Assembly: GCA_032622095.1 (NCBI GenBank) | Contig: CP136068.1 | Location: 120,453,509 to 120,517,508, forward strand | Length of the DNA stretch: 64,000 bases | Source: Siphonodentalium dalli | Taxonomy: Eukaryota > Mollusca > Scaphopoda > Gadilida > Siphonodentaliidae | Reading direction: 5' to 3' | Part shown: one piece after another, positions 18,121 through 60,680 of the stretch | How the letters are laid out: each line of letters starts with the position of its first letter | Numbering within the stretch: position 1 is the first letter of the stretch | Translations under genes and position numbers: made by a program | The notes under the pieces: model-generated | Seen by the model: the letters and a program-made list of their open reading frames with translations, nothing else | The model's database searches: none | Told to the model about the DNA's origin: nothing

Positions 18121-18450
18121 AAATATGGGGAATACACAGAAGAAAGTATCTATCAATATAAATATGAATATCATCCAGGAGGTGTACCCGTACATGTGTT
18201 AACGAAAGCTACTGCGGATTATACAACGGAGGACAAGTATAAAATATTCACTGTGTTATAGAGAACTTGGACTTTGAAATAACATCTACAACGAGTACGC
18301 GATCTTAGTATTTATCACCTCGTGATGTGAGGCTATGTGAGAGTATACCAATAAGAAAACAGTGTCCTGGCCATGTTGCCGCATATAGTATTCGCATACG
18401 ATTCAAAGAAGTTACATTCAGAGCATTTGTTTTCATTTCCCAGATTGACA

Positions 18451-20256
18451 ATGTTCTTTCGAATCAACCGTGGACCTATCGTACTGATTTTAATGTTTTC
18501 ATCTTATTTTTCAAATGTTGGAGTAGAGGCAATACATGGTACATTCGATGACACGATTGCTGAAACTTTCTTCAGCGTTTATGCAGATTCATCTGCAGTT
18601 GAATCCCAGAATACTAGTCTGTGGGACGGATTTTTCGGAAAAGATATTAATTTTAAGTGGTTGTTAAATTTAATTTCCGGCATACCATCTGACGAAAGCA
18701 CTGACAGGTATGCCTTGGATGATTACCAACTGTTCAACGTGTCTGAGTTGTGTCAGAAAGACGTTGACGAGATTAAAGATGGGGTTCACAACCGCACGCG
18801 ATGGTCCCTTCAAATGATCGACAGTAGTTTTAAACCGAAAGCTGGAATTCTAACCGGAAATGTGAAATGGACCGGGGACTATGAAGAGTGCTTTACAACA
18901 GAACACAGTTATAGAGTGAACGATTCTTCTAGAACGTTCAGTGGACGATACTGTGGTCTGGTTGTTCACTTTAAAACTCTCGGAAATCGGGTCTTTATGC
19001 TTGAAGGTGCGGATAATGCAGCAAAATTTTCGTTCCATGTTGGTTTGTGCGTTCCAGAAAGCTGTAACGGGAATGATATCGTGAATGTCATACACAATTA
19101 TTTAGAGCAATCGTCAATCAAAAAGCAAGTCGCGGTCGAATTTGGACATTGCGAAGCTCACGGATCAAGCTACACAATCAAAGCAATAGTTGCGTTGGCT
19201 GTATCGGGGACGATTACGCTTCTCATGGTTATAGGAACACTAAACGACATCAGTCTCTTGTACAAGACACAGAAGGAAACTCAACAGGATGGAACAGTAA
19301 ACGCACCCTCTCTTTCGTCTCACGACATATCGCACGAGTCAAGCAAGTTCCAAGTGACAAAACAACCAAGGAAGAAACGAGTCGGGATATTCGAAAAGGT
19401 TTTGTTGGCCTTTTCAGTTTACACCAACACAAAAAAGATCTTTGATTCAACAGGAGGTAACAGCACGCTAAAATGTGTCCATGGTATCCGTTGTTTAAGT
19501 ATGACATGGGTGATGGTAGGACACACCTATAAAAATGGTGTAAGTGTTTTGATGGATTTACCCCTCGCGAATTCTTGGACACACAGATTTGCTTTCCAAG
19601 TGGTCGACAATGAAACAGTGTCAGTTGACTCATTCTTTGCGCTAAGTGGTCTTCTTCTGACGTACTTGACATTGTCTGAGATGAAGCCGAAAAATGGGCG
19701 TATACACTGGGTCATGTTTTACTTCCATCGGTACTATCGTCTGACAATGCCATACGCGTTAGTCATGCTATTCTATGCGCCATTGTATCACCATTGGTAT
19801 TATGGACCTTTCTGGTCAGACAAAAGCCCAAGGGCCTGCAGCGAAAACTGGTGGCACAACTTATTGTACATAAACAACATAGTAAACGGTCCTGACTGCA
19901 TGGGCGTGACCTGGTATCTCGGAAACGACATGCAATTTTTCGTACTCAGTCCGCTGATTATCGTACCCGTGTATTTCTGGCCTCGAATTGGTTATGCCGT
20001 TTGGACTGTATTTCTATTAACTACTACAATAACCGCCGGAGTTATCTCCAATGTGAATATGTTTACACCCAGTGATCTGGGAATACACCATAAAGTTCCT
20101 CATGGTATGCATCCGAAATTCAATGACTACTACCAGAAACCCTGGTGCAGAATGGGACCATACCTTGTTGGCATTCTTTATTCTCATGAGAAGATGTGCC
20201 TATCCCATGACATTCCCCTGGTCAGGTGGCCGACCTGTGCCAATTTCCCTACATAA
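18451..20256 (+). CDS. NRF-6-like membrane acyltransferase (NRF domain + acyltransferase-3), 3' incomplete
   Basis: I chose the ATG at 18451 because it places a signal peptide (FRINRGPIVLILMFSSYF, residues 3-20) at the N-terminus; the frame is also open from an ATG at 18373. From 18451 the protein has 601 residues. About 98-230 form the cysteine-rich NRF domain (CQKDVDEIKDG, GRYCGL, LCVPESC). A membrane segment lies at about 243-263, followed by a polar loop. From 343 the acyltransferase-3 fold begins: HGIRCLSMTWVMVGH with the conserved His at 358, FFALSGLLLTY, FYFHRYYRLTMPYA, GVTWYLGNDMQFF and KPWCRMGPYLVGIL. Known relatives (nose resistant to fluoxetine protein 6, C. elegans) are multi-pass proteins implicated in lipid or drug transport across epithelia. 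After about residue 576 the family match stops and roughly 120-150 residues with several membrane spans are missing, so an intron or truncation lies near 20180. More than 1.7 kb without an intron is notable. Confidence 0.85.
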   Translation: MFFRINRGPIVLILMFSSYFSNVGVEAIHGTFDDTIAETFFSVYADSSAVESQNTSLWDGFFGKDINFKWLLNLISGIPSDESTDRYALDDYQLFNVSELCQKDVDEIKDGVHNRTRWSLQMIDSSFKPKAGILTGNVKWTGDYEECFTTEHSYRVNDSSRTFSGRYCGLVVHFKTLGNRVFMLEGADNAAKFSFHVGLCVPESCNGNDIVNVIHNYLEQSSIKKQVAVEFGHCEAHGSSYTIKAIVALAVSGTITLLMVIGTLNDISLLYKTQKETQQDGTVNAPSLSSHDISHESSKFQVTKQPRKKRVGIFEKVLLAFSVYTNTKKIFDSTGGNSTLKCVHGIRCLSMTWVMVGHTYKNGVSVLMDLPLANSWTHRFAFQVVDNETVSVDSFFALSGLLLTYLTLSEMKPKNGRIHWVMFYFHRYYRLTMPYALVMLFYAPLYHHWYYGPFWSDKSPRACSENWWHNLLYINNIVNGPDCMGVTWYLGNDMQFFVLSPLIIVPVYFWPRIGYAVWTVFLLTTTITAGVISNVNMFTPSDLGIHHKVPHGMHPKFNDYYQKPWCRMGPYLVGILYSHEKMCLSHDIPLVRWPTCANFPT

Positions 20257-21300
20257 GGAACGATCTTTATTGATCATATTTGCCCCTTTAAGTCGCATGA
20301 GATCAACGGCATCAATCTCGTGACACCCTACAGGTCAATTATCCACGTGTTTTAATTATTCCGTTTAAAACATCTGATATCAACGGGACCTATCTAATAT
20401 AAGATTAGCTACACCTGTGACATCCTGTATGATGTTAATTGCACCACTTATCATCAATTTCGGATGTTACATTGCCTTCATATTTTACTAGTATATGCCT
20501 TATATTATGGGGCGGTAAGTTTCAAATATAACACAATCGTCTACTTTGTGATCGTTAAATTTGTCACGAATGCCATTGTCAGTGTGAAGATTTTTTTTTT
20601 TCGACAAATCAATCAAAATTACCGCAACTTGTTTTCAGTTTGTGTATATGTAGCCTACGAAGAGGGTGACTTCCATTTCTCATTAATCATTCGAAAATCT
20701 TTCACTAGCATAAAGGGTGTTGCATTGTATCATCAAAACACTCTTTCCACGCACCGGTCTACCCCGATTCAAAATATTCGGATATTCTAAAACCGGGTGA
20801 ACTAGAATGTACGCAATACCTGTTTTAATTCTTGCGTTGCCTCCATCTTATATATTGTTATTGCCTGATAGCCCAACCCTCCCCCAATAAAGCACTACGA
20901 TCACATACCACCTCTTGCCCACCGGTTTGCCTATAACTGGGATCGGCCCTTTGTGGCCGAATCCTATTGTAATGATTAATATTATGACTTATCGGGCAAG
21001 AGTTGGTGTGTTCTATACGCGTGCAGTAAGTACAAAGGGAAAGAAACTAAAATATGTTGTGTTCACTTATATAGCCTTCTGTCATTCCTTGCACTACGTT
21101 CCATTGGTATAACGCAAAACTTGACTTTCCTCATTGTTCTGAAGTATTATATGCTGAATAACGATAGTATACTTCCCAAATATATTTTTGATAGGAATAA
21201 TTTCAGAGTCACTACAAACTTTAGCAAACTTTCCTTCAATGTTGCAATAAACACAATATCTCGATAATCACTAGTAACTTTATCACACTTATATATGTCG
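20257..21300. other. Downstream region of the NRF-6-like exon, no recognised exons
   Basis: If the gene continues, its remaining acyltransferase exons should lie here or beyond, but no frame shows the expected family motifs. A hydrophobic frame at about 20464-20650 is not convincing. AATAAA occurs at about 20885. Confidence 0.3.
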
Positions 21301-22391
21301 TGCAATTTATGAAATAATGAAAAGTTTATTAATGAAATCTGGGAGCGTTCACCCAAATCCTGGACCAAACGCACCTACACTGTCGATTATGTGCCTCAAT
21401 GTACAAAGCCTATTGCCAAAGATTGATACCATTATTGCCGAATGTCAAAATTATGATATACTTGCATTTACTGAGACCTGGCTATCAGATTCAACCTCGG
21501 ACGAGGAGTTGACTATACCGGGATTCAACAGCCCTGGACGACTTAATCGTCCTACTCTCGGTGGAGTTATTGCGATTTATGTCCGCAACTCACTTCATTT
21601 CAAAAGGCGAAAAGATATCGAAATACTCGGCCTTGAACATATGTGGTTAGAAATATTCACGCCTACGAACAGTTTCCTTTTTGGAACCTTCTATAGATCT
21701 CCGAATTCACCTGTAGAACTCTGGGATAAAATATAAACCTCACTTGATGGAGCGATGGATACAAAAGATTCCAGAAATCACACAATTATTACCGGAGATT
21801 TCAATTGTAACCAACTGTGCACTGAACCAAAACAAACAAGATATATATATGTGGGAAGTTTGGTATGAAACAGCTTATAGAACAACCAACCTACTTCACT
21901 GAAAAATCCCGATCACTCTTAGACCTGTTTTTCTCAAATAAACCGGATTTTGTACAGTCGTGTGAGATTTTAGATGCTTTTTTTGCAGAATTGGTTCGAT
22001 ATCACTGCCCAATCGTACTTACTTTAAATATTTGTAAAGCGACATCGAACCGATTCATCAAAAGAAGAATATGGAAATACAACGAGGCAAATTTCAGTGC
22101 AATGAATGAAGAATTGCAAACGTTGAAACATGTGAAGTATACAGAACTTGCGACGGTGGTAACTAACAAAATAAATGAAGTCGCGATAAAACACATTCCA
22201 AAAAAATTTGTTACAATTAGAACAGATGAACCCGAATGAATGTCAGGCCACATTCGTCTCCTTATGAGACAACGCAAACGATTATATGCCAAAGCAAAAC
22301 AGAATACGACATTAAATGCATGGGCTAAATATAAAACCAAGCGAAATTAAGTAATATCATCTATCAGAACTGCCAAGCGACTGATTCCTCA

Positions 22392-23483
22392 GTGTGGTGG
22401 AAAACTCTTAATAGACTCATGGCCCCAGACCACAAACATATTCCGTCACTTTGCGAGGACAACAACGTATACACAGATAACAATTCTAAATCAGAAATAT
22501 TAAATAATTATTTTTGCTCTACATCGTCCCTGCCCGAATCTGACAAAAAAGAACCACCGCTATTATCTAGATCTAAAAATTGTACATTGAAACTTATTAA
22601 GATTACACACAAAGATGTATTGGAATCCCTGACAAGTGTTAAAGTAGCAAAGGCCAGTAGCGATGACGGTATCAGCCCAAAAATTCTAAAGAATTGCGCA
22701 ACGGCCCTAGCAAGTCCTATGTGCTATATATTTAACGAATTGTTAAAACATTCCTATTTCCCTGATGAGTGGAAGAGAGCAAACGTTTGTCCCATATTTA
22801 AAAAAGGAGATCCAAGTATGCCATCGAATTATCGTCCGATTTCATTGCTAAGTTGCCTCTCAAAAATATTTGAGAAATGTATCTTTCGACATTTATCAAA
22901 ATACTTATACGAAAATAAGCTCCTAACAGATTTACAATCGGGTTTCACTCCAAATGACAGTACCGTATTCCAACTAACAGACATATATCATTATCTTATT
23001 TCATCTTTAGACGAAGGAAAAGAAATAAGGTGTCTTGTCTGTGACATCAGCAAAGCTTTTGATAAAGTTTGGCATAAGGGATTATTGTCCAAACTAAGTA
23101 ACCTAGGTGTGTGTGAAAACACATACGACATTTTGAAAAATTATTTGGAAAATCGACAACAAAGAGTCATTTTGGAAACTACCCAGTCGTCTTGGAAATC
23201 TGTAGAATCTGGTGTCCCCCAATGGTAAATACTGGGTCCCCTACTATTCTTGATATACATCAATGATATAGCAGACGATATAACAAGTAATATCCGACTT
23301 TTTGCAGACGATACCTCCCCTTTTCTAGCAGTAGAAGATCCCATAATGGCTGCTGACATCCTAAACAAAGATATATCGAAAATACACGACTGGTCTAACA
23401 AATGGCTCGTTAAATTTAACCCATCCAAAACTGAATCCCTCTTAGTTAGCAGGAAAGAAATTAAACCTAACCTTATATTCTGA
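22392..23483 (+). pseudogene. Reverse transcriptase domain of the CR1/L2-like element
   Basis: This is the best preserved coding block of the retrotransposon. Fingers and palm motifs run in order: KRANVCPIFKKGD, NYRPISLLSCLSKIFEK, LQSGFTPNDST, CLVCDISKAFDKVW (first catalytic Asp), then a premature stop at 23226-23228, and FADDTSPF (second and third catalytic Asp), with SRKEIKPNL at the break. RT would copy the element RNA at a nicked chromosomal target (target-primed reverse transcription). The stop between the palm motifs and the following insertion exclude activity. Confidence 0.8.
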
Positions 23484-37365: not shown

Positions 37366-37579
37366 TACAGTAATGCTCTAATTAATCGACTCCTTAACCA
37401 CAGCAGAATTATGGATAACTTTTCAGGATTTAGTCGGACATATGGCTTGTTGCCATTCATTGGAAAGCTCTCGAGAGCTTTTCGATGAATGGCAACAAGC
37501 CATATTTCCGACTAAACCCTGAAATGTTACCCATAATTCTGCTGTGGTTAAGAAGTCGATTAATTAGAGCATTACTGTA
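37366..37579. mobile_element. Near-perfect palindromic MITE, TA-flanked, copy 1
   Basis: TACAGTAATGCTCTAATTAA begins an arm of about 105 bp that is reverse-complemented to end in AGCATTACTGTA at 37579; the centre is AAAGCTCTCGAGAGCTTT. Termini CAGT next to TA suggest a Tc1/mariner-type non-autonomous element. Copy 2 is at 60464-60680. Confidence 0.85.
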
Positions 37580-37740: not shown

Positions 37741-38215
37741 ATGGAATCCTATTAGGGCCACTTGCTAATGGCGCTTTCGGCGCACTTTTTGTCGCTTTCG
37801 GCGCGCGCCGAAACATACCCTAATGGCGCACTTTTTGTCGCTTCCGGCGCGCGCCATTAGGGAGTGGACCTAATAGTATGCCTAATAGCGCTTTCGGCGC
37901 GCGCCGAAAGCGACAAAAAGTGCGCCATTAGTAACGCGTCGAAAGCGACAAAATGTGCGCCATTACGGCGCACATTTTGTCGCTTTCGGCGCGCCAAAAC
38001 ATGCGCTAATATCGCACATTTTGTCGCTTTCGGCGCGCGCGCCGAAAGAGCCGAAAGCGACAAAAAGTGCGCCGAAAGCGACAAATAGTGCGCCGTAACG
38101 GCGCATATTTTGTCGCTTTCGTCGCTTTCGGCGCGTTACTAATGGCGCACTTTTTGTCGCTTTCGGCGCATCGCGCCGAAAGCGCCATTAGCAAGTGGCC
38201 CTAATAGGATTCCAT
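37741..38215. repeat. GCGC palindrome array bounded by ~30 bp inverted repeats
   Basis: ATGGAATCCTATTAGGGCCA starts the element and its complement ends it. The inside consists almost entirely of GGCGCACTTTTTGTCGC, GCTTTCGGCGCGCGCCGAAA and their complements arranged as inverted repeats, so nearly every piece can pair with several others. A second copy is at 54040-54301. The frames through it are repeat translations. Strongly GC-rich against AT-rich surroundings. Confidence 0.85.
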
Positions 38216-38220
38216 ATAAT

Positions 38221-44690: not shown

Positions 44691-44819
44691 TTCCCTAATA
44701 GTTCTTCATTACATGGATTCTCTCAAACACAACGCTGAAGCAGCTCCATGAATTACGTTACAAGTTCCCAGTTCTCAAAAGATAATAATAATCGTTACTA
44801 AATCGCCTATGTATGCATA

Positions 44820-45640
44820 ACCATATCAGCTATATACGGGGCTACCCTTGTGGATTCGTCTTGTGCGCCACTTGTCCATCCACAAATCACAAACTAGGTC
44901 AAATACTAGTCCAACTGTTCAAAAGTTGGGCGTAAGTCGTGCGTGGGGTCAAAATAATTAAAACAATGTCAGTTTTCGTTGCTAAATCACCCGTACAAAA
45001 GCAACCACGGAGCTATTCTTATGGATTCTTCTTGTGCCGCCACTGATCCATCTTGAAATCACAAATTAGGTCCAATACGCCCGTCCAGCTGTTAAAAAAA
45101 TGGGCGTGTCGTGCGTGGGGTAAAAATATGGCATTTTCGTTGCTAAATCGCCTGTGTAGGCATAACCATAGCAGCCACGGGGAAGTCCTTGTGGAATCTT
45201 CTTGTGCCGCCAATAGTCCATCTAGAAATCACAAACTAGGTCACATAACCCCGTCCAGCTGTTCAACAATTGGGCGTAAGTCGTGCATGGGGTAAAAATT
45301 GGACAGTTTTCGTTGCTAAATTCCTGAGGTATATATGCACAACCACAGACGCCGCGGGGCTATCCTTATGGATTCTTCTTGTGTCGCCACTATTCCATCT
45401 AGAAATAACAAAATAGGTCACATAGGCCTACGCCAGTTCAGCTGTTCAAAAATTGGGCGTATGTCGTGCTGGGGTCAATTTTTGAATAGCTGGACGGGCG
45501 TATGTGACCTAGTTTGTAATTTCTAGACGAACTAGTGACGGCACATGAAGTATCCACAAGATTGCCTCGTGGATGTTGTGGTATTGCCTACACAGTCGAT
45601 ATAGCAACGAGAAATGACCTATTTTCATTATTTTGACACC
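44820..45640. repeat. ~172 bp satellite, about four direct units and one inverted
   Basis: Direct units contain TATGGATTCTTCTTGTGCCG, TCCATCTAGAAATCACAAA, CCAGCTGTTCAAAAATTGGG and TTTTCGTTGCTAAATCGCC at about 44861, 45031, 45201 and 45377. From about 45474 the orientation flips (AATAGCTGGACGGGCGTATG). The same satellite, in the flipped orientation, continues at 54310-54690, and one fragment is at 47643-47690. Confidence 0.8.
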
Positions 45641-47350: not shown

Positions 47351-47984
47351 GTCTCGTCAAAATTTCAGCAAATTGGAATTGTGTTTGACTTGCCGTGCAA
47401 ATTGTGACAATGTCGTACACGTACGTTTATAGAGTATCACACCGTTTCGAAATATACTTCTTCGGTTTTAGTGGGACTTTTCGAACTATAACGGTTCAAA
47501 ATTGATATTTTGTTTGCTTAACAATGGCAGCATGATTGTTGCTCTGTTTGCTTGGTATATATCTTAATCTCGTGGGTAAAATGTCGCCGGTAGCAGCGGT
47601 CTTACCGAGTCATCAAGGGAGGTAAACATGTACTGCATGGAGTTTGGCACGACACGTCCAATATTTGAACAGCTGGACAGGCGTACATGTATGATACCCA
47701 CCCCAGTTGGCCCCATATCAGGAACGATAACTCTATCCGAAGTACATGACCTATATTCTATGCAGTACCCCAGTTGGGGTTAGTCTAGACAGTTTACCTA
47801 TATTCTCCACCCACGCATTGCATCATGGTCTATTTGTATAACGGTTGGGCCCGTTGGTTATATCCAGACTTCTCCATATGAATGGTATATTATCTACATG
47901 TATATCACATGATGATCTTGGTGGGGGTAGCTCCAGTCTTGAGTGTTAAAGGGACACTAGGCTCTCACTGGGAGGATAATGTTA

Positions 47985-48130
47985 AAGTGACACTCGCATT
48001 GAAAACTTCAAAAAATTCAAAACTTCAAAAATTTCAAAAATTTCAAAAACTTCAAAAATTCAAAAAACTTCAAATATTTCAAAACAATTAAACAAAAATC
48101 AAATTTTCCAAAAACTTCAAAAAAATTCAG
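47985..48130. repeat. CTTCAAAAATTTCAAAAA low-complexity tract (also 51300-51445 and 53560-53715)
   Basis: Degenerate ~9 bp units (TTCAAAAAT, TTCAAAAAC) run on one strand here and in complement at the two other end regions of the 6.35 kb element. Copy number differs: the third tract has about 18 bases more than the second. Confidence 0.8.
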
Positions 48131-48275
48131 GATTTAGAAAAAAATATGGCTTGTTGCCATTCATCGGAAAGATCTGGGGGTACGGTGGTGAGCGCCACCG
48201 AAAAGAGCAAGTGAGCAAGGGAAAAAAGAGAAAAATAACATGACATGTGGTACATACTACAATTTATTATATTAA

Positions 48276-48803
48276 CTATTCACTGTCACTTTCGTCCGAA
48301 TTGTCATCACTTTCGTCAGATGTGTCATTTGTTTCGTCCATGAACTTTTCTAGCAATGGTCTGTACTTTAATATTGACATTTTCACTGCATCACGATCTT
48401 CAAAACCATTCTTAATATATTTGGCCACTTTATCCATGACATTGTTGTGCAGAGTCCCATTGCGCAGCCACATATTCTTTATTATTGTCCAAGCATAAAC
48501 ATTCATAAATAGCCTCATGCCTTCAGTTTTAAGATCTGTACCTTTAAGGTCCTTGTCAGCTTGTACTTTTGCCTCTTTTTCTGTCGAGCCATTTTCCATA
48601 TACGTTTCCACGTTATCACTCCATGCTTCTTGTGCTTTATCTCTACTCTCATCACACAAACTTTTGAAGTATTCATCTTCATTCGATTTAATATTCTTAT
48701 TCTGACTATCATCCATGTCCTCAGTTAATTTTCGTTTTAACTTATTTTCTTGACACCAGTTTTTTTTTACGTGTCTCTGGACATCATGCTGATCTTCGAA
48801 CAA
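48276..48803 (-). pseudogene. C2H2-linked acidic-tail protein fragment (left copy)
   Basis: The minus-strand frame of 175 codons begins within the C2H2 finger (EDQHDVQRHV), continues through a charged, probably helical region (SRDKAQEAWSDNVETYMENG, LFMNVYAWTIIKNMWL) and ends in an acidic tail (SDESDDNSDESDSE). The upstream part of the same protein (49129-48899) is in another frame because about 7 bases are missing near 48903 relative to the right copies. One extra Lys codon lies in the finger linker. Non-functional as it stands. Confidence 0.7.
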
Positions 48804-48898
48804 AAGCCCACAGTCATTGCAAGGGTACGAGATCTCTTCTCGAATGCCTATGTTTTTATGGTTTTCTTTATTAATTTCATTGATCTCACCAGGTGTCC

Positions 48899-49129
48899 TT
48901 ACGTATAGCCATTATGTTGACCATGGGGCACAATATAATTATATGTCATGCCCTCCCGTTGACCAGGGAGATCTCTGTCATCATATTTCATCTCATTCCG
49001 TTGATCCGGGCTATTGTTGTCATCACATTTCACCACATTCTGTTCATCTGGGTGCTCGCTGTCCTTATGGAGATTATATTTCATGCCATTCCATTCACCC
49101 ATATGTTGGTTCGTGTCCTCTGTTAGCAC
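48899..49129 (-). pseudogene. Linker fragment between ATPase and C2H2 part (left copy)
   Basis: The minus-strand frame contains NQHMGEWNGMKYNLHKD and DDRDLPGQREGMTYN, the same stretch that begins the long frames at 50232 and 52480. A 1-base difference near 49147 puts it out of frame with the ATPase, and the deletion near 48903 puts it out of frame with the zinc-finger tail. Confidence 0.65.
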
Positions 49130-49737
49130 ATTCTGTCGCAGCCGTAATGTGTCCGGGTTGCGGCTTTTAAATCCACCAGTAGGTAACCGTACGGTTCACT
49201 CGTCGCTTCCGAAAACTCTCTCATCATACGTTGAGGGCATTCAGGATACACCTGTCTCGATAATGTTGAAATTAAACCCTTGTCAATTCGGTTATTGAAC
49301 AATACCAAATATTGACAATTTCGTCGTTGCGTCGGATCTTTGTTGTAGTAGAAATTCTTGTTCAAACTTATCAAAGATAAGTTCAAATGGTGACTTCCTT
49401 CGGAATGTAAATCATTAACTCTCTGGTCTTTTGATGAAGTTTGCATCAAGTCATCGAGTACAACTAGATTTTTATACTGGGGGTTGATAAGAGAATCCAA
49501 GTTTGCTGGTATTCCCCGTATAAAGTTGACCTGAGGGGTGACGGTATACTTTATGTCATCATATAGGGGCTGCCAATATTTATAAAACCATATTATTCTG
49601 TCAGGTGCGGGTGATATTTTTGAGGCAGACTTTTGTAGCAAGGTTTTCACAAAGTACGTCTTCCCGCTAGATGTCGGTCCACTTACGCATGCCGTGAATG
49701 GATGGTTGAAGACAAAATATTCATGTATATTGGCCAT
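49123..49737 (-). CDS. P-loop packaging-type ATPase, 204 aa, left copy, longest in the window
   Basis: It starts at the ATG at 49735-49737. Walker A is GPTSSGKT at residues about 20-27, preceded by FNHPFTACVS. Walker B is LVVLDDL at about 92-98. Downstream are NKNFYYNKDPTQRRN, an arginine-rich stretch in the place where a sensor or finger would lie, and CPQRMMREF. These features fit the FtsK/HerA superfamily ATPases that pump DNA into capsids in Polinton-like elements and several large DNA virus groups; such proteins act as multimers at a capsid vertex. The C-terminus differs from the right copies after about residue 192 because one base is missing in a C-run near 49153. Functional state unknown, probably decayed. 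Confidence 0.65.
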   Translation of the reverse strand: MANIHEYFVFNHPFTACVSGPTSSGKTYFVKTLLQKSASKISPAPDRIIWFYKYWQPLYDDIKYTVTPQVNFIRGIPANLDSLINPQYKNLVVLDDLMQTSSKDQRVNDLHSEGSHHLNLSLISLNKNFYYNKDPTQRRNCQYLVLFNNRIDKGLISTLSRQVYPECPQRMMREFSEATSEPYGYLLVDLKAATRTHYGCDRMC

Positions 49738-49793
49738 TGGATCATCAAAGCAGGATGTTATGTCGCTTTGTTGCTGTTTTCCCTGATGGTGTT

Positions 49794-49979
49794 CTAGTAA
49801 CCGGTGTTGTTGTAATGGCTGTTGCTGTCGTTGTTGTTGTGGCTGATGCTTGTTGCTGTTTGTTGCTGCTGCTGTCGTGGTTGTAGGTTGACAAACTCAG
49901 TGTGCTTAGATTGTACATGTCTTTTCAAATCATGGATCCGCCCATACTCACTAGAGCAAATTGAACACTGGTGCTTCAT
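49794..49979 (-). CDS. Small C2H2 zinc-finger protein, 61 aa, polyglutamine
   Basis: The ATG at 49977-49979 opens a frame with one classical C2H2 finger at the N-terminus (CSICSSEYGRIHDLKRHVQS, completed by KH) and then a glutamine/asparagine-rich tail (PRQQQQQTATS, NNNDSNSHYNN). The stop lies 57 bases before the ATPase ATG on the same strand, and reading continues open into the ATPase in another frame, so the finger and ATPase may once have been one protein or two adjacent genes. An identical copy is at 52042-52227. Confidence 0.6.
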   Translation of the reverse strand: MKHQCSICSSEYGRIHDLKRHVQSKHTEFVNLQPRQQQQQTATSISHNNNDSNSHYNNTGY

Positions 49980-50059
49980 TTATACTTGACTAAAATATCT
50001 CGGGGGTATATGGCTTTCCTTTATACAAATGTTCCTTATAACCTCAAATCTGTCCTGTA

Positions 50060-51164
50060 TTGACGTCATTGCAGAATTTCTACTACAACAAAGATCCGAC
50101 GCAACGACGAAATTGTCAATATTTGGTATTGTTCAATAACCCAATTTACAAGGGTTTAATTTCAACATTATCAAGACAGATGTATCCTGAATGCCCTCAA
50201 CGTATGATGCGAGAGTTTTCGGAAGCGACGAGTGAACCGTACGGTTACCTACTCAGTGGTGGATTTAAAAGTCGCAACCCCGGACACATTACGGCTGCGA
50301 CAGAATGTGCTAAAAGAGGACACGAACCAACATATGGGTGAATGGAATGGCATGAAATATAATCTCCATAAAGACAGCGAACACCCAGATGAACAGAATG
50401 TGGTGAAATGTGATGACAACAATAGCCCGGATCAACGGAATGAGATGAAATATGATGACAGAGATCTCCCTGGTCAACGGGAGGGCATGACATATAATTA
50501 TATTGTGCCCCAGGGTCAACATAATGGCTATACTAATGACATAAGGACACCTGGTGAGATCAATGAAATTAATAAAGAAAACCATAAAAACATAGTCATT
50601 CGAGAAGAGATGTCGTACCCTTGCAATGACTGCGGGCTTTTGTTCGAAGATCAGCATGATGTCCAGAGACACGTAAAAAACTGGTGTCAAGAAAATAAGT
50701 TAAAACGAAAATTAACTGAGGACATGGATGATAGTCAGAATAAGATAATTAAATCGAATGAAGATGAATACTTCAAAAGTTTGTGTGATGAGAGTAGAGA
50801 TAAAGCACAAGAAGCATGGAGTGATAACGTGGAAACGTATATGGAAAATGGCTCGACAGAAAAAGAGGCAAAAGTACAAGCTGACAAGGACCTTAAAGGT
50901 ACAGATCTTAAAACTGAAGGCATGGGGCTATTTATGAATGTTTATGCTTGGACAATAATCAAGAATATGTGGCTTCGCAATGGGACTCTGCACAACAGTG
51001 TCATGGATAAAGTGGCCAAATATATAAAGAATAGTTTTGAAGATCGTGATGCAGTGAAAATGTCAATATTAAAGTACAGACCATTGCTAGAAAAGTTCAT
51101 GGACGAAACAAATGACACATCTGACGAAAGTGATGACAATTCGGACGAAAGTGACAGTGAATAG
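50060..51164 (+). pseudogene. ATPase C-terminal half plus C2H2/acidic-tail region, middle copy
   Basis: From about 50084 the plus strand enters the ATPase at NFYYNKDPTQRRN; everything before, including both Walker motifs, is missing. The frame ends at 50339-50341 after a 4-base insertion near 50252 (CTACTCAGTGG). The overlapping long frame, 50232-51164, carries LRLRQNVLKEDTNQHMG, the C2H2 finger (YPCNDCGLLF, VQRHVKNWC) and the acidic tail. The apparent GTG start at 50232 is not a real initiation site. Identical by eye to 52308-53412 apart from one Ser/Gly difference. Confidence 0.7.
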
Positions 51165-51565
51165 TTAATATAATAAATTGTAGTATGTACCACATGTCAT
51201 GTTATTTTTCTCTTTTTTTCCTTGCTCACTTGCTCTTTTCGGTGGCGCTCACCACCGTACCCCAGATCTTTCCGATGAATGGCAACAAGCCATATTTTTG
51301 ACTAAATCCTGAATTTTGTTTAATTTTTGAAGTTTTTGGAAAATTTGATATTTTTTTTAAATTTGTTAAATTTGTGAAGTTATTGAAATTTTTGAAATTT
51401 GTTGAAATTTTGAAATTTTTGAAATTTTTGAAGTTTTGAATTTTTCAATGCGAGTGTCACTTTAACATTATCCTCCCAGTGAGAGCATAGTGTCCCTTTA
51501 ACATTCAAGACTGAAGCTACCCCCACCGAGATCATCATGTGATATACATGTAGATAATATACCAT

Positions 51566-51985
51566 TCATATGGAGAAGTCTGGATATTTGTTGTAGTAGA
51601 AATTCTTGTTCAAACTTATCAAAGATAAGTTCAAATGGTGACTTCCTTCGGAATGTAAATCATTAACTCTCTGGTCTTTTGATGAAGTTTGCATCAAGTC
51701 ATCGAGTACAACTAGATTTTTATACTGGGGGTTGATAAGAGAATCCAAGTTTGCTGGTATTCCCCGTATAAAGTTGACCTGAGGGGTGACGGTATACTTT
51801 ATGTCATCATATAGGGGCTGCCAATATTTATAAAACCATATTATTCTGTCAGGTGCGGGTGATATTTTTGAGGCAGACTTTTGTAGCAAGGTTTTCACAA
51901 AGTACGTCTTCCCGCTAGATGTCGGTCCACTTACGCATGCCGTGAATGGATGGTTGAAGACAAAATATTCATGTATATTGGCCAT
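51566..51985 (-). pseudogene. P-loop ATPase N-terminal half, second copy, truncated at the tandem junction
   Basis: It starts at the equivalent ATG (51983-51985) with both Walker motifs (GPTSSGKT, LVVLDDL) and is identical in reading to the first copy through NKNFYYNK, where the sequence jumps at 51587/51588 to the element's end region. The last few codons are junction sequence. Confidence 0.75.
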
Positions 51986-52041
51986 TGGATCATCAAAGCA
52001 GGATGTTATGTCGCTTTGTTGCTGTTTTCCCTGATGGTGTT

Positions 52042-52227
52042 CTAGTAACCGGTGTTGTTGTAATGGCTGTTGCTGTCGTTGTTGTTGTGGCTGATGCTTG
52101 TTGCTGTTTGTTGCTGCTGCTGTCGTGGTTGTAGGTTGACAAACTCAGTGTGCTTAGATTGTACATGTCTTTTCAAATCATGGATCCGCCCATACTCACT
52201 AGAGCAAATTGAACACTGGTGCTTCAT
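52042..52227 (-). CDS. Small C2H2 zinc-finger protein, second copy
   Basis: Identical in translation to 49794-49979: one C2H2 finger followed by a Q/N-rich tail, in the second 2.25 kb unit. Its position relative to the ATPase fragment is the same. Confidence 0.6.
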   Translation of the reverse strand: MKHQCSICSSEYGRIHDLKRHVQSKHTEFVNLQPRQQQQQTATSISHNNNDSNSHYNNTGY

Positions 52228-52307
52228 TTATACTTGACTAAAATATCTCGGGGGTATATGGCTTTCCTTTATACAAATGTTCCTTATAACCTCAAATCTG
52301 TCCTGTA

Positions 52308-53412
52308 TTGACGTCATTGCAGAATTTCTACTACAACAAAGATCCGACGCAACGACGAAATTGTCAATATTTGGTATTGTTCAATAACCCAATTTACAAG
52401 GGTTTAATTTCAACATTATCAAGACAGATGTATCCTGAATGCCCTCAACGTATGATGCGAGAGTTTTCGGAAGCGACGAGTGAACCGTACGGTTACCTAC
52501 TCAGTGGTGGATTTAAAAGTCGCAACCCCGGACACATTACGGCTGCGACAGAATGTGCTAAAAGAGGACACGAACCAACATATGGGTGAATGGAATGGCA
52601 TGAAATATAATCTCCATAAAGACAGCGAACACCCAGATGAACAGAATGTGGTGAAATGTGATGACAACAATAGCCCGGATCAACGGAATGAGATGAAATA
52701 TGATGACAGAGATCTCCCTGGTCAACGGGAGGGCATGACATATAATTATATTGTGCCCCAGGGTCAACATAATGGCTATACTAATGACATAAGGACACCT
52801 GGTGAGATCAATGAAATTAATAAAGAAAACCATAAAAACATAGTCATTCGAGAAGAGATGTCGTACCCTTGCAATGACTGCGGGCTTTTGTTCGAAGATC
52901 AGCATGATGTCCAGAGACACGTAAAAAACTGGTGTCAAGAAAATAAGTTAAAACGAAAATTAACTGAGGACATGGATGATAGTCAGAATAAGATAATTAA
53001 ATCGAATGAAGATGAATACTTCAAAAGTTTGTGTGATGAGAGTAGAGATAAAGCACAAGAAGCATGGAGTGATAACGTGGAAACGTATATGGAAAATGGC
53101 TCGACAGAAAAAGAGGCAAAAGTACAAGCTGACAAGGACCTTAAAGGTACAGATCTTAAAACTGAAGGCATGGGGCTATTTATGAATGTTTATGCTTGGA
53201 CAATAATCAAGAATATGTGGCTTCGCAATGGGACTCTGCACAACAGTGTCATGGATAAAGTGGCCAAATATATAAAGAATGGTTTTGAAGATCGTGATGC
53301 AGTGAAAATGTCAATATTAAAGTACAGACCATTGCTAGAAAAGTTCATGGACGAAACAAATGACACATCTGACGAAAGTGATGACAATTCGGACGAAAGT
53401 GACAGTGAATAG
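52308..53412 (+). pseudogene. ATPase C-terminal half plus C2H2/acidic-tail region, right copy
   Basis: Same organisation as 50060-51164 at an offset of 2248 bp, including the 4-base insertion and the missing Walker region, so the damage predates the tandem duplication. The frame 52480-53412 ends with the acidic tail SDESDDNSDESDSE. It forms the inner part of the right inverted arm and pairs with 48276-49340. Confidence 0.7.
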
Positions 53413-54039
53413 TTAATATAATAAATTGTAGTATGTACCACATGTCATGTTATTTTTCTCTTTTTTCCCTTGCTCACTTGCTCTTTTCGGTGGCGCTCAC
53501 CACCGTACCCCAGATCTTTCCGATGAATGGCAACAAGCCATATTTTTGACTAAATCCTGAATTTTGTTTAATTTTTGAAGTTTTTGGAAAATTTGATTTT
53601 TTTTTGAAATTTGTTAAATTTGTGAAGTTATTGAAATTTTTGAAGTTTTTGAAATTTGTTGAAATTTTGAAATTTTTGAAGTTTTTGAAATTTTTGAAGT
53701 TTTGAATTTTTCAATGCGAGTGTCACTTTAACATTATCCTCCCAGTGAGAGCATAGTGTCCCTTTAACATTCAAGACTGAAGCTACCCCCACCGAGATCA
53801 TCATGTGATATACATGTAGATAATATACCATTCATATGGAGAAGTCTGGATATAACCAACGGGTCATGTCCGGACATGCCCAACCGGTATACAAATAGAC
53901 CATGATGCAATGCGCGGGTGGAGAATATAGGTAAACTGTCTAGACTAACCCCAACTGGGGTACTGCAGAGAATATAGGTCATGTACTTCGGATAGAGTTA
54001 TCGTTCCTGATCTGGGACAACTGGGGTGGGTATCATCAC

Positions 54040-54301
54040 ACTTCCTAATGGCGCTTTCGGCGCGCGCCGAAAGCGACAAAAAGTGCGCCATTAGTAACGC
54101 GCCGAAAGCGACAAAAAGTGCGCTATTAGTGCATGTTTCGTAATGGCGCACATTTTGTCGCTTGTTGCGCTTTCGACTCACCGAAACATGCGCTAATATC
54201 GCACTGTTTGTCGCTTTCGGCGCGTTACTAATGGCGCACTATTTGTCGCTCTCGGCGCGCGCCGAAAGCGCCATTAGGAAGTGGCCCTAATAGTATTCCA
54301 T
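54040..54301. repeat. GCGC palindrome array, second copy, 5' trimmed
   Basis: CACTTCCTAATGGCGCTTTC through GCGCCATTAGGAAGTG, then GGCCCTAATAGTATTCCAT on the right only. The interior words (GGCGCGCGCCGAAAGCGACA, AGTGCGCCATTAGTAACGCG) match 37741-38215. The left outer ~20 bp is missing where the 6.35 kb element begins. Confidence 0.85.
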
Positions 54302-54309
54302 ATAAATGG

Positions 54310-54690
54310 CAAATTTTTACCCCACGTAATATTTACGCCCGATTTTTGAAAAGCTGGACAGGCGTATGTGGCATAGTTTGTGATTTCTAGATGGACTAGT
54401 AGCGGCACAAGAAGAATCCATTAGGATAGCCCCGTGGCTGCTTTGATTATGCCTATACATGGTTGATTTAGCAACGAAATGTGACATTGTTTTGACCCCA
54501 CGCAAGACTTATACGCCAAATATTTGAATAGTTGGACGAGCGTATGTGACCTATTTGTTATTTGTGGCTGGACCAATGGAGTCAGAAGAAGAATCCACAA
54601 TGATAGCCCAGTGGCTGCTATGGTGGTTATGCCAACGCATCCGATTTAGCAACGAAAAATTAACTTTTTTCATTATTTTGACAAATCAAC
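54310..54690. repeat. ~172 bp satellite, two units in flipped orientation
   Basis: Units share AAAGCTGGACAGGCGTATGT, CACAAGAAGAATCCA, AGTGGCTGCT and GATTTAGCAACGAAA with the 44.8-45.6 kb array. The satellite therefore lies on both sides of the 6.35 kb element. Confidence 0.8.
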
Positions 54691-60463: not shown

Positions 60464-60680
60464 TACAGTAATGCTCTAATTAATCGACCTCTTAACCACA
60501 GCAGAATTATGGGTAACTTTTCAGGATTTATTCGGAAATATGGCTTGTTGCCATTCATCGGAAAGCTCTCGGTGAGAGCTTTCCGATGAATGGCAACAAG
60601 CCATATTTCCGACTAAATCCTGAAAAGTTACCCATAATTATGCTGTGGTTAAGAGGTCGATTAATTAGAGCATTACTGTA
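60464..60680. mobile_element. Near-perfect palindromic MITE, TA-flanked, copy 2
   Basis: Same termini (TACAGTAATGCTCTAATTAA) and inner words (TATGGCTTGTTGCCATTCAT, CGACTAAATCCTGAAAAGTT) as 37366-37579, 217 bp, with the centre GAAAGCTCTCGGTGAGAGC. About 45 bp of each inner arm also occurs at the ends of the 6.35 kb element. Confidence 0.85.

What the first reader, a model, noticed from the sequence alone, without database searches (positions are those of the whole stretch)
47691..54036. A 6.35 kb foldback element carrying packaging-ATPase and zinc-finger genes
Large inverted arms (more than 1.6 kb) contain coding sequence for a P-loop ATPase linked to a C2H2/acidic-tail region, with a second small C2H2 gene head to head at the centre. 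A Walker A/B ATPase of packaging type without capsid, polymerase or integrase in sight is unusual for a eukaryotic transposon, and pairing with two zinc-finger modules is not a layout I can match to a named family. It may be a minimal Polinton-like or otherwise undescribed virus-derived element, or a satellite element using another's machinery.
Basis: partly seen in the sequence, partly recalled or inferred. Interest (0 to 1): 0.9.

Follow-up and report, generated by a model that had tools for sequence, protein, structure and literature searches.

The report
Broken foldback Polinton-type element
The large inverted repeat is real, but it is most likely a decayed, rearranged end piece of a virus-like jumping element of the Polinton/Maverick type rather than a new kind of minimal element.

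Summary
The foldback is real: 47691-54036, arms about 1.7 kb, 94% identical. It holds three copies of one terminal segment, because a 2.25-kb block is also tandemly duplicated (99%). In another clade, with Mytilus members, an adenovirus-type protease replaces the tail. One probably mussel-derived contig has this ATPase head to head with a family-B DNA polymerase. That points to a Polinton/Maverick-type parent, although no full-length relative, integrase or capsid gene was seen. In the window the gene is broken or truncated in every copy and no other core gene was recognised. Differences between the arms are enriched for synonymous changes (9 of 21, 4.3 expected, one-sided P=0.013), suggesting two diverged copies joined head to head. 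A trans-mobilised foldback satellite is not excluded but lacks positive evidence: no target-site duplication was found, and other copies could not be sought (genome search did not complete, 11 calls).

The parts
47691..54036 (.). Whole foldback element
   Evidence: Self-BLAST arms 47688-49358 / 52321-54040, 94%; both ends begin with the same 18 bases (ATGATACCCACCCCAGTT)
47691..49358 (+). Left arm (L)
50073..51587 (-). Inverted arm R1 (lacks the outermost ~170 bases of the end)
   Evidence: 95% identical to L
52321..54036 (-). Inverted arm R2, with the complete end
   Evidence: 94% identical to L
49331..51587 (+). First copy of a 2.25-kb tandem duplication (loop + R1)
   Evidence: 98.9% identical to 51578-53853; four substitutions and two 9-base indels, plus two differences at the junction end
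51578..53853 (+). Second copy of the tandem duplication (loop + R2)
49123..49896 (-). A32-like packaging ATPase frame, left copy (257 codons), Walker A GPTSSGKT, Walker B LVVLDD
   Evidence: Pfam Pox_A32 E=8.9e-6, 25.8 bits vs cut-off 22.8; 489 homologues
49794..49979 (-). N-terminal C2H2 piece, in another frame than the ATPase (same again at 52042-52227)
   Evidence: resembles the N-termini of P0001, P0006, P0048
51566..52144 (-). N-half of the ATPase, second copy, cut off at the duplication junction
   Evidence: Pox_A32 E=4e-5, 23.6 bits vs 22.8
50208..51164 (+). End of ATPase + second C2H2 + acidic tail (R1)
   Evidence: 318-codon frame; P0008 residues 245-419 match at E=1.2e-26; alignment A2
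52456..53412 (+). End of ATPase + second C2H2 + acidic tail (R2)
   Evidence: 318-codon frame; P0008 match E=1.6e-26
48276..48911 (-). Second C2H2 + acidic tail, left copy
   Evidence: P0008 match E=1.3e-24
50042..50341 (+). C-half of ATPase in R1 (same again at 52290-52589 in R2)
   Evidence: P0006/P0008 matches at 50057-50254 and 52305-52502
49980..50072 (-). Stretch upstream of the C2H2 start, promoter-like: TATAAAG and a TGACGTCA palindrome; ends at the inversion junction
   Evidence: sequence; function inferred
48001..48139 (+). Near-terminal array of ~9-base A/T-rich repeats
   Evidence: family D3

Best explanation
This is a decayed, non-autonomous and rearranged remnant of a Polinton/Maverick-type virus-like element, probably in a bivalve genome. 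The parent's end next to its packaging-ATPase gene is present in head-to-head inverted orientation. Shown: the arms, the extra tandem duplication, and the ATPase gene broken or truncated in every copy. Inferred: the ATPase once powered DNA packaging into capsids in the parent; the zinc fingers and acidic tail handled DNA or partners; polymerase, protease, integrase and capsid were encoded on the lost part. Inferred origin: two slightly diverged copies of the terminal segment were joined head to head, by template switching between co-replicating genomes or by insertion of one truncated copy beside another. A 2.25-kb tandem duplication, perhaps microhomology-mediated, followed. It is now most likely a fossil.
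For: Pox_A32 match above the curated cut-off. 489 homologues, 120 listed; 15 of the 120 carry an organism name and those 15 are bivalves. Relatives encode C2H2-ATPase-C2H2-tail in one protein. Adenain (PF00770) is fused behind the ATPase in P0042 (31.0 bits, cut-off 21.3) and P0124 (21.8 bits), and below the cut-off in P0033, P0030 and P0125. L001, a contig filed under a Bathymodiolus symbiont bin, has the C2H2-ATPase divergent from a DNA_pol_B_2 piece (E=8e-5, 22.1 bits, just under the cut-off of 25.8). The window ATPase has the longest end branch of its 10-row set, 0.53 (tree median 0.19), and departs at several positions that are at least 90% invariant, which fits decay. Arm differences: 9 of 21 synonymous vs 4.3 expected, one-sided P=0.013. 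GGAT is shared by both sources of the duplication junction. Published: Maverick is listed at 1.69% and 1.93% in a table of the Mercenaria genome paper (PMC8905726, passage); Mavericks occur in all mollusc genomes analysed in PMC10294476 (passage); vertebrate Mavericks hold PolB and ATPase in one module (PMC8097293, section 7).
Against: No 6-bp target-site duplication and none of the end motifs listed for vertebrate Mavericks at these ends. No integrase, capsid or penton gene was recognised in any relative. The polymerase evidence rests on one short contig whose frames are broken, on a match just under Pfam's cut-off; another piece of it matched no polymerase in the PDB. The synonymous excess depends on 21 changes and on a frame switch placed by hand (10 of 21, P=0.003, with the first, wrong placement), and could also come from selection after the joining. 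Bivalve host is inferred from homologue names only.
Confidence: 0.7

Rival explanations
1. It is a true foldback satellite of a Polinton: both ends derive from the same end of the parent, so each carries the terminal origin (and perhaps a packaging region). It was copied by the parent's protein-primed polymerase, perhaps packaged, and integrated in trans, like a defective-interfering genome.
For: Both ends begin at the same base and L and R2 keep the complete end. [quoted passage not shown] That some adenovirus defective genomes are symmetric is recalled, not read.
Against: No target-site duplication. The arms look like two diverged copies rather than one molecule folded back on itself. No second copy is known; the genome could not be searched.
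Confidence: 0.15
2. The parent is not a Polinton proper but a relative in the adintovirus/adomavirus/'meldvirus' or Polinton-like-virus assemblage, with a different gene set around the same ATPase.
For: Chimeric animal viruses of this assemblage are reported, e.g. an adomavirus sequence from a Tegillarca clam dataset with a packaging-ATPase homologue and a zinc-finger gene (PMC11071296, sections 14 and 16). No integrase or capsid gene was seen here.
Against: Family-B DNA polymerase piece beside the ATPase and adenain fused to it fit Polintons; but adintoviruses may share both, so this does not separate them.
Confidence: 0.25
3. The foldback is an assembly or sequencing artefact (missed-adapter chimera, collapsed haplotypes).
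For: R1 and R2 are 99% identical, so the tandem copy in particular could be an assembly effect; no reads were available.
Against: L differs from the R arms by 5-6%, with 13 to 23 gap openings (alignment); a missed-adapter palindrome would be expected to be near-identical.
Confidence: 0.06
4. The ATPase is a host gene captured by or domesticated from the element and kept for a cellular function.
For: Bivalve gene models contain it (15 named ones among the 120 listed).
Against: Gene broken or truncated in every window copy, long branch, repeat-rich setting; adenain fusion and PolB neighbour in relatives.
Confidence: 0.03

Closest known systems
Polinton/Maverick elements (incl. adintoviruses)
   Same: A32/FtsK-HerA-type packaging ATPase; one relative sits beside a family-B DNA polymerase piece, others carry adenain; inverted ends; Mavericks reported in mollusc genomes.
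   Different: In the window element no PolB, integrase, protease, capsid or penton was recognised; the arms include the ATPase gene itself; no target-site duplication or vertebrate end motif; ATPase flanked by two C2H2 fingers in one protein.
Adenovirus defective (incomplete-particle) genomes
   Same: End-derived, non-autonomous DNA keeping a terminal region; symmetric forms are recalled from older literature (reference titles only seen).
   Different: Host-integrated; arms appear to come from two diverged copies; no evidence of replication or packaging.
Foldback (FB/TU-type) transposons
   Same: Long inverted arms with internal repeats (name and features recalled).
   Different: Arms carry a viral-type packaging-ATPase gene; no evidence of a foldback family.
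C2H2 proteins of virophages and protist Polintons
   Same: C2H2 zinc proteins listed in virophages and some Polintons (PMC3671162, passages).
   Different: In those passages the C2H2 stands alone or with a GIY-YIG nuclease, not with the ATPase.

Membership tests
Polinton/Maverick | Packaging ATPase of A32/FtsK-HerA type | tested here: met
   Pox_A32 above cut-off; gene broken in the window
[quoted passage not shown]
   None of the L001 frames other than the ATPase matches the element (two weak 26-29 aa matches lie elsewhere in the window, E=0.005-0.009); no PolB among Pfam hits of the seven main frames. A PolB piece lies beside the ATPase in relative L001. So 'derived from', not 'is', a complete member
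Polinton/Maverick | Adenovirus-type protease (adenain) | tested here: not met
   None among the Pfam hits of the seven main frames of the element; fused to the ATPase in some relatives
Polinton/Maverick | RVE integrase | tested here: not met
   None among Pfam hits of the seven main element frames nor of ten further frames of the window; relatives' surroundings not available
Polinton/Maverick | Major and minor capsid proteins | tested here: inconclusive
   None recognised by Pfam; structure prediction never ran (10 calls, machine busy)
Polinton/Maverick | Terminal inverted repeats | tested here: met
   Both ends share the terminal sequence, inside much longer arms
Polinton/Maverick | 6-bp target-site duplication; AG/AGT/AC end motifs (vertebrate elements, PMC8097293) | tested here: not met
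   read; end motifs of bivalve elements unknown to me
Defective-interfering (snapback) genome of a protein-primed virus | Symmetric arms copied from one molecule | tested here: inconclusive
   Arms symmetric, but differences look older than the joining (9 of 21 synonymous, one-sided P=0.013)
Defective-interfering (snapback) genome of a protein-primed virus | Replication and packaging in trans | not testable with these tools
   needs experiments or multiple copies

The most novel reading that the evidence does not exclude
A palindromic satellite of a Polinton: a 4-6 kb element with the same parental end at both sides, hence two terminal origins and perhaps two packaging signals, replicated, packaged and integrated by full-length Polintons in animals; a natural defective-genome lineage of these elements fixed in a host.
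Probability: 0.12. Interest if true: 0.65.

Novelty: new variant of a known kind. Interest (0 to 1): 0.3.

Why it matters
Mavericks encode capsid homologues but their particles have not been observed (abstract of PMC8097293 as listed). A C2H2-ATPase-C2H2 protein ending in either an acidic tail or an adenain protease would tie the packaging motor physically to DNA-binding modules and to the maturation protease; I found no description of it in the held papers (searches; passages). The window locus itself is mainly a caution: a foldback of broken pieces can look like a new minimal element.

Tried and rejected
Rejected: separate ATPase and zinc-finger genes (relatives show one protein). Missed-adapter artefact for the arms (5-6% divergence). 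Simple snapback from one molecule is disfavoured, not excluded, by the synonymous excess. The first version of that test used a wrong frame-switch position and gave 10 of 21, P=0.003; corrected to 9 of 21, P=0.013. In the tree I labelled five rows as adenain-fused; one of them (P0041) has no protease hit of its own in any call and was labelled by its near-identity to P0042, so only four count.

Led nowhere: four viral-contig scans found no relative; PHROGs gave no informative match; PDB by sequence gave zinc fingers and weak chance-like matches and no polymerase for one L001 piece; a search with the upstream part of a Mytilus gene model found only itself and one other Mytilus model; structure prediction of the ATPase and of the C2H2/tail never started; paper searches for non-autonomous Polintons and palindromic protein-primed genomes gave nothing on point in their listings. 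Host species not determined.
Full report
What is there. Self-comparison of the window shows an inverted repeat: L (47688-49358) pairs with R2 (52321-54040) at 94% and with R1 (50073-51587) at 95%. R1 and R2 exist because a block of about 2.25 kb is present twice head to tail (49331-51587 and 51578-53853, 98.9%); these differ by four substitutions and two 9-base indels, plus two differences at the junction end; the indels lie in an A/T-rich repeat array. The element is therefore: end - L - loop - R1 (without its outermost ~170 bases) - loop - R2 - end. The duplication junction shares GGAT between its two sources, which fits microhomology-mediated duplication.

The gene. The minus-strand frame 49123-49896 matches Pfam Pox_A32 at E=8.9e-6, above the curated cut-off, with intact Walker A and B motifs. 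A protein search gave 489 homologues among 707 candidates (the best 120 listed). Of the 120, 15 carry an organism name, and those 15 are bivalves (Mytilus, Mercenaria, Mya, Ruditapes). By pattern, 27 of the 120 have the first finger, 50 the second and 12 both; of the 59 long enough beyond the ATPase core, 47 have the second finger (many entries are fragments or gene models that start inside). P0034 and P0043 show both fingers, the ATPase and at least the beginning of the tail in one entry. The small central 'gene' (49794-49979) resembles the N-terminus of this protein and lies in another frame than the ATPase. So the zinc-finger pairing is an architecture of the family, not a chance combination in this element.

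State of the copies. Only the left copy has a complete ATPase frame; the first C2H2 and the tail lie in other frames. The loop copy before R2 keeps the N-half only, and the right-pointing arms keep the C-half, finger and tail. The ATPase departs from several positions that are at least 90% invariant, and its end branch, 0.53, is the longest of its 10-row set (tree median 0.19; four rows elsewhere are longer, in which 51 of 135 proteins had a recognisable full domain and 49 were of suitable length). No polymerase, integrase, protease or capsid gene was recognised in the element by Pfam on its seven main frames, nor by comparison with the L001 frames.

What the relatives carry. P0042 (Mytilus galloprovincialis) ends in an adenovirus endoprotease domain (PF00770, 31.0 bits, cut-off 21.3); P0124 is just above the cut-off (21.8) and P0125 just below (21.0); P0033 and P0030 are below it (17.1 and 19.9). 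P0042, P0124, P0033 and P0030 fall in one 12-row set (97/98) together with rows without a visible protease, apart from the window's 10-row set (97/90). The only scan of genome contigs confirmed 1 of 24 candidate stretches: L001, 5,687 bases, filed under a thiotrophic symbiont of Bathymodiolus septemdierum; I take it for host mussel DNA by inference. There the C2H2-ATPase is divergent from frames of which one matches DNA polymerase B (DNA_pol_B_2, E=8e-5, 22.1 bits against a cut-off of 25.8, profile positions 375-433); the frame nearest the ATPase on the polymerase strand starts with another C2H2, and that it belongs to the polymerase gene is inferred. PDB comparison of another piece gave no polymerase. 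ATPase, protease and PolB are Polinton core genes in the papers consulted (PMC4028283, passages; PMC8097293, passages and section 7), and PolB and ATPase share a module in vertebrate elements. A table of the Mercenaria paper lists Maverick at 1.69% and 1.93% (PMC8905726, passage).

How the foldback arose. A fold-back of one replicating strand would give arms identical at birth that then decay neutrally. In the shared coding stretch (about 1.09 kb) L and R2 differ by 21 substitutions, 9 of them synonymous against 4.3 expected (one-sided P=0.013; an earlier version with a misplaced frame switch gave 10 and P=0.003). This suggests that much of the difference arose while the gene was still under selection, most simply in two separate parental copies. 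I therefore favour joining of two diverged copies head to head, by template switching between co-replicating genomes or by insertion side by side. The junction lies 93 bases upstream of the C2H2 start, behind a promoter-like stretch with TATAAAG and TGACGTCA. The test is small and the inference moderate.

Is it mobile? Both ends are complete and equal, which a trans-acting polymerase and integrase could use; [quoted passage not shown] the old papers themselves were not read). But no target-site duplication was found: the left flank appears to stop inside a ~178-base tandem repeat unit, and the right side is taken up by an adjoining MITE-like palindrome. The key test, other copies in the same genome, could not be run: the genome search did not complete (11 calls), and structure prediction never started (10 calls).

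Verdict. Ordinary in kind: a broken, rearranged Polinton-type remnant, with a family architecture (C2H2-ATPase-C2H2-tail or -adenain) for which I found no description in the held papers. Interest 0.3.

Noticed in passing
window 54039-54283, and 37881-38219: A G+C-rich MITE-like palindrome (GGCGCTTTCGGCGCGCGCCGAAAGCG...) abuts the right end of the foldback; a related copy lies at 37.9-38.2 kb.
   Followed up: partly
window 37422-37523 and 60520-60624, and 48126-48175: Two short palindromic MITE-like elements share a 50-base stretch (90-94%) with the near-terminal part of the foldback arms; the relation is unexplained.
   Followed up: partly
window 44792-45638, 47647-47685, 54304-54658: Diverged ~178-base tandem repeats lie on both sides of the element; the insertion site seems to lie in such an array, with part of a unit missing.
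   Followed up: partly
window 50061 and 52309: TGACGTCA palindrome (ATF/CREB-like, name recalled) upstream of the ATPase gene in both loop copies; it occurs five times in the whole window, so it may be chance.
   Followed up: no
window 18355-20253: NRF-6-like acyltransferase gene piece (NRF and Acyl_transf_3 domains), likely a host gene.
   Followed up: no
window 21278-23225: Non-LTR retrotransposon remains: endonuclease and reverse transcriptase domains.
   Followed up: no
L001 1-5687: Contig JACCHT010000018.1, filed under a bacterial symbiont bin, looks like host mussel DNA with Polinton genes: probable contamination of the bin.
   Followed up: partly
P0131 (Mytilus edulis gene model): A model named DIS3-like exonuclease 2 is 91% identical to 36% of the C2H2/adenain region of P0042: a chimeric gene model or an insertion.
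   Followed up: no
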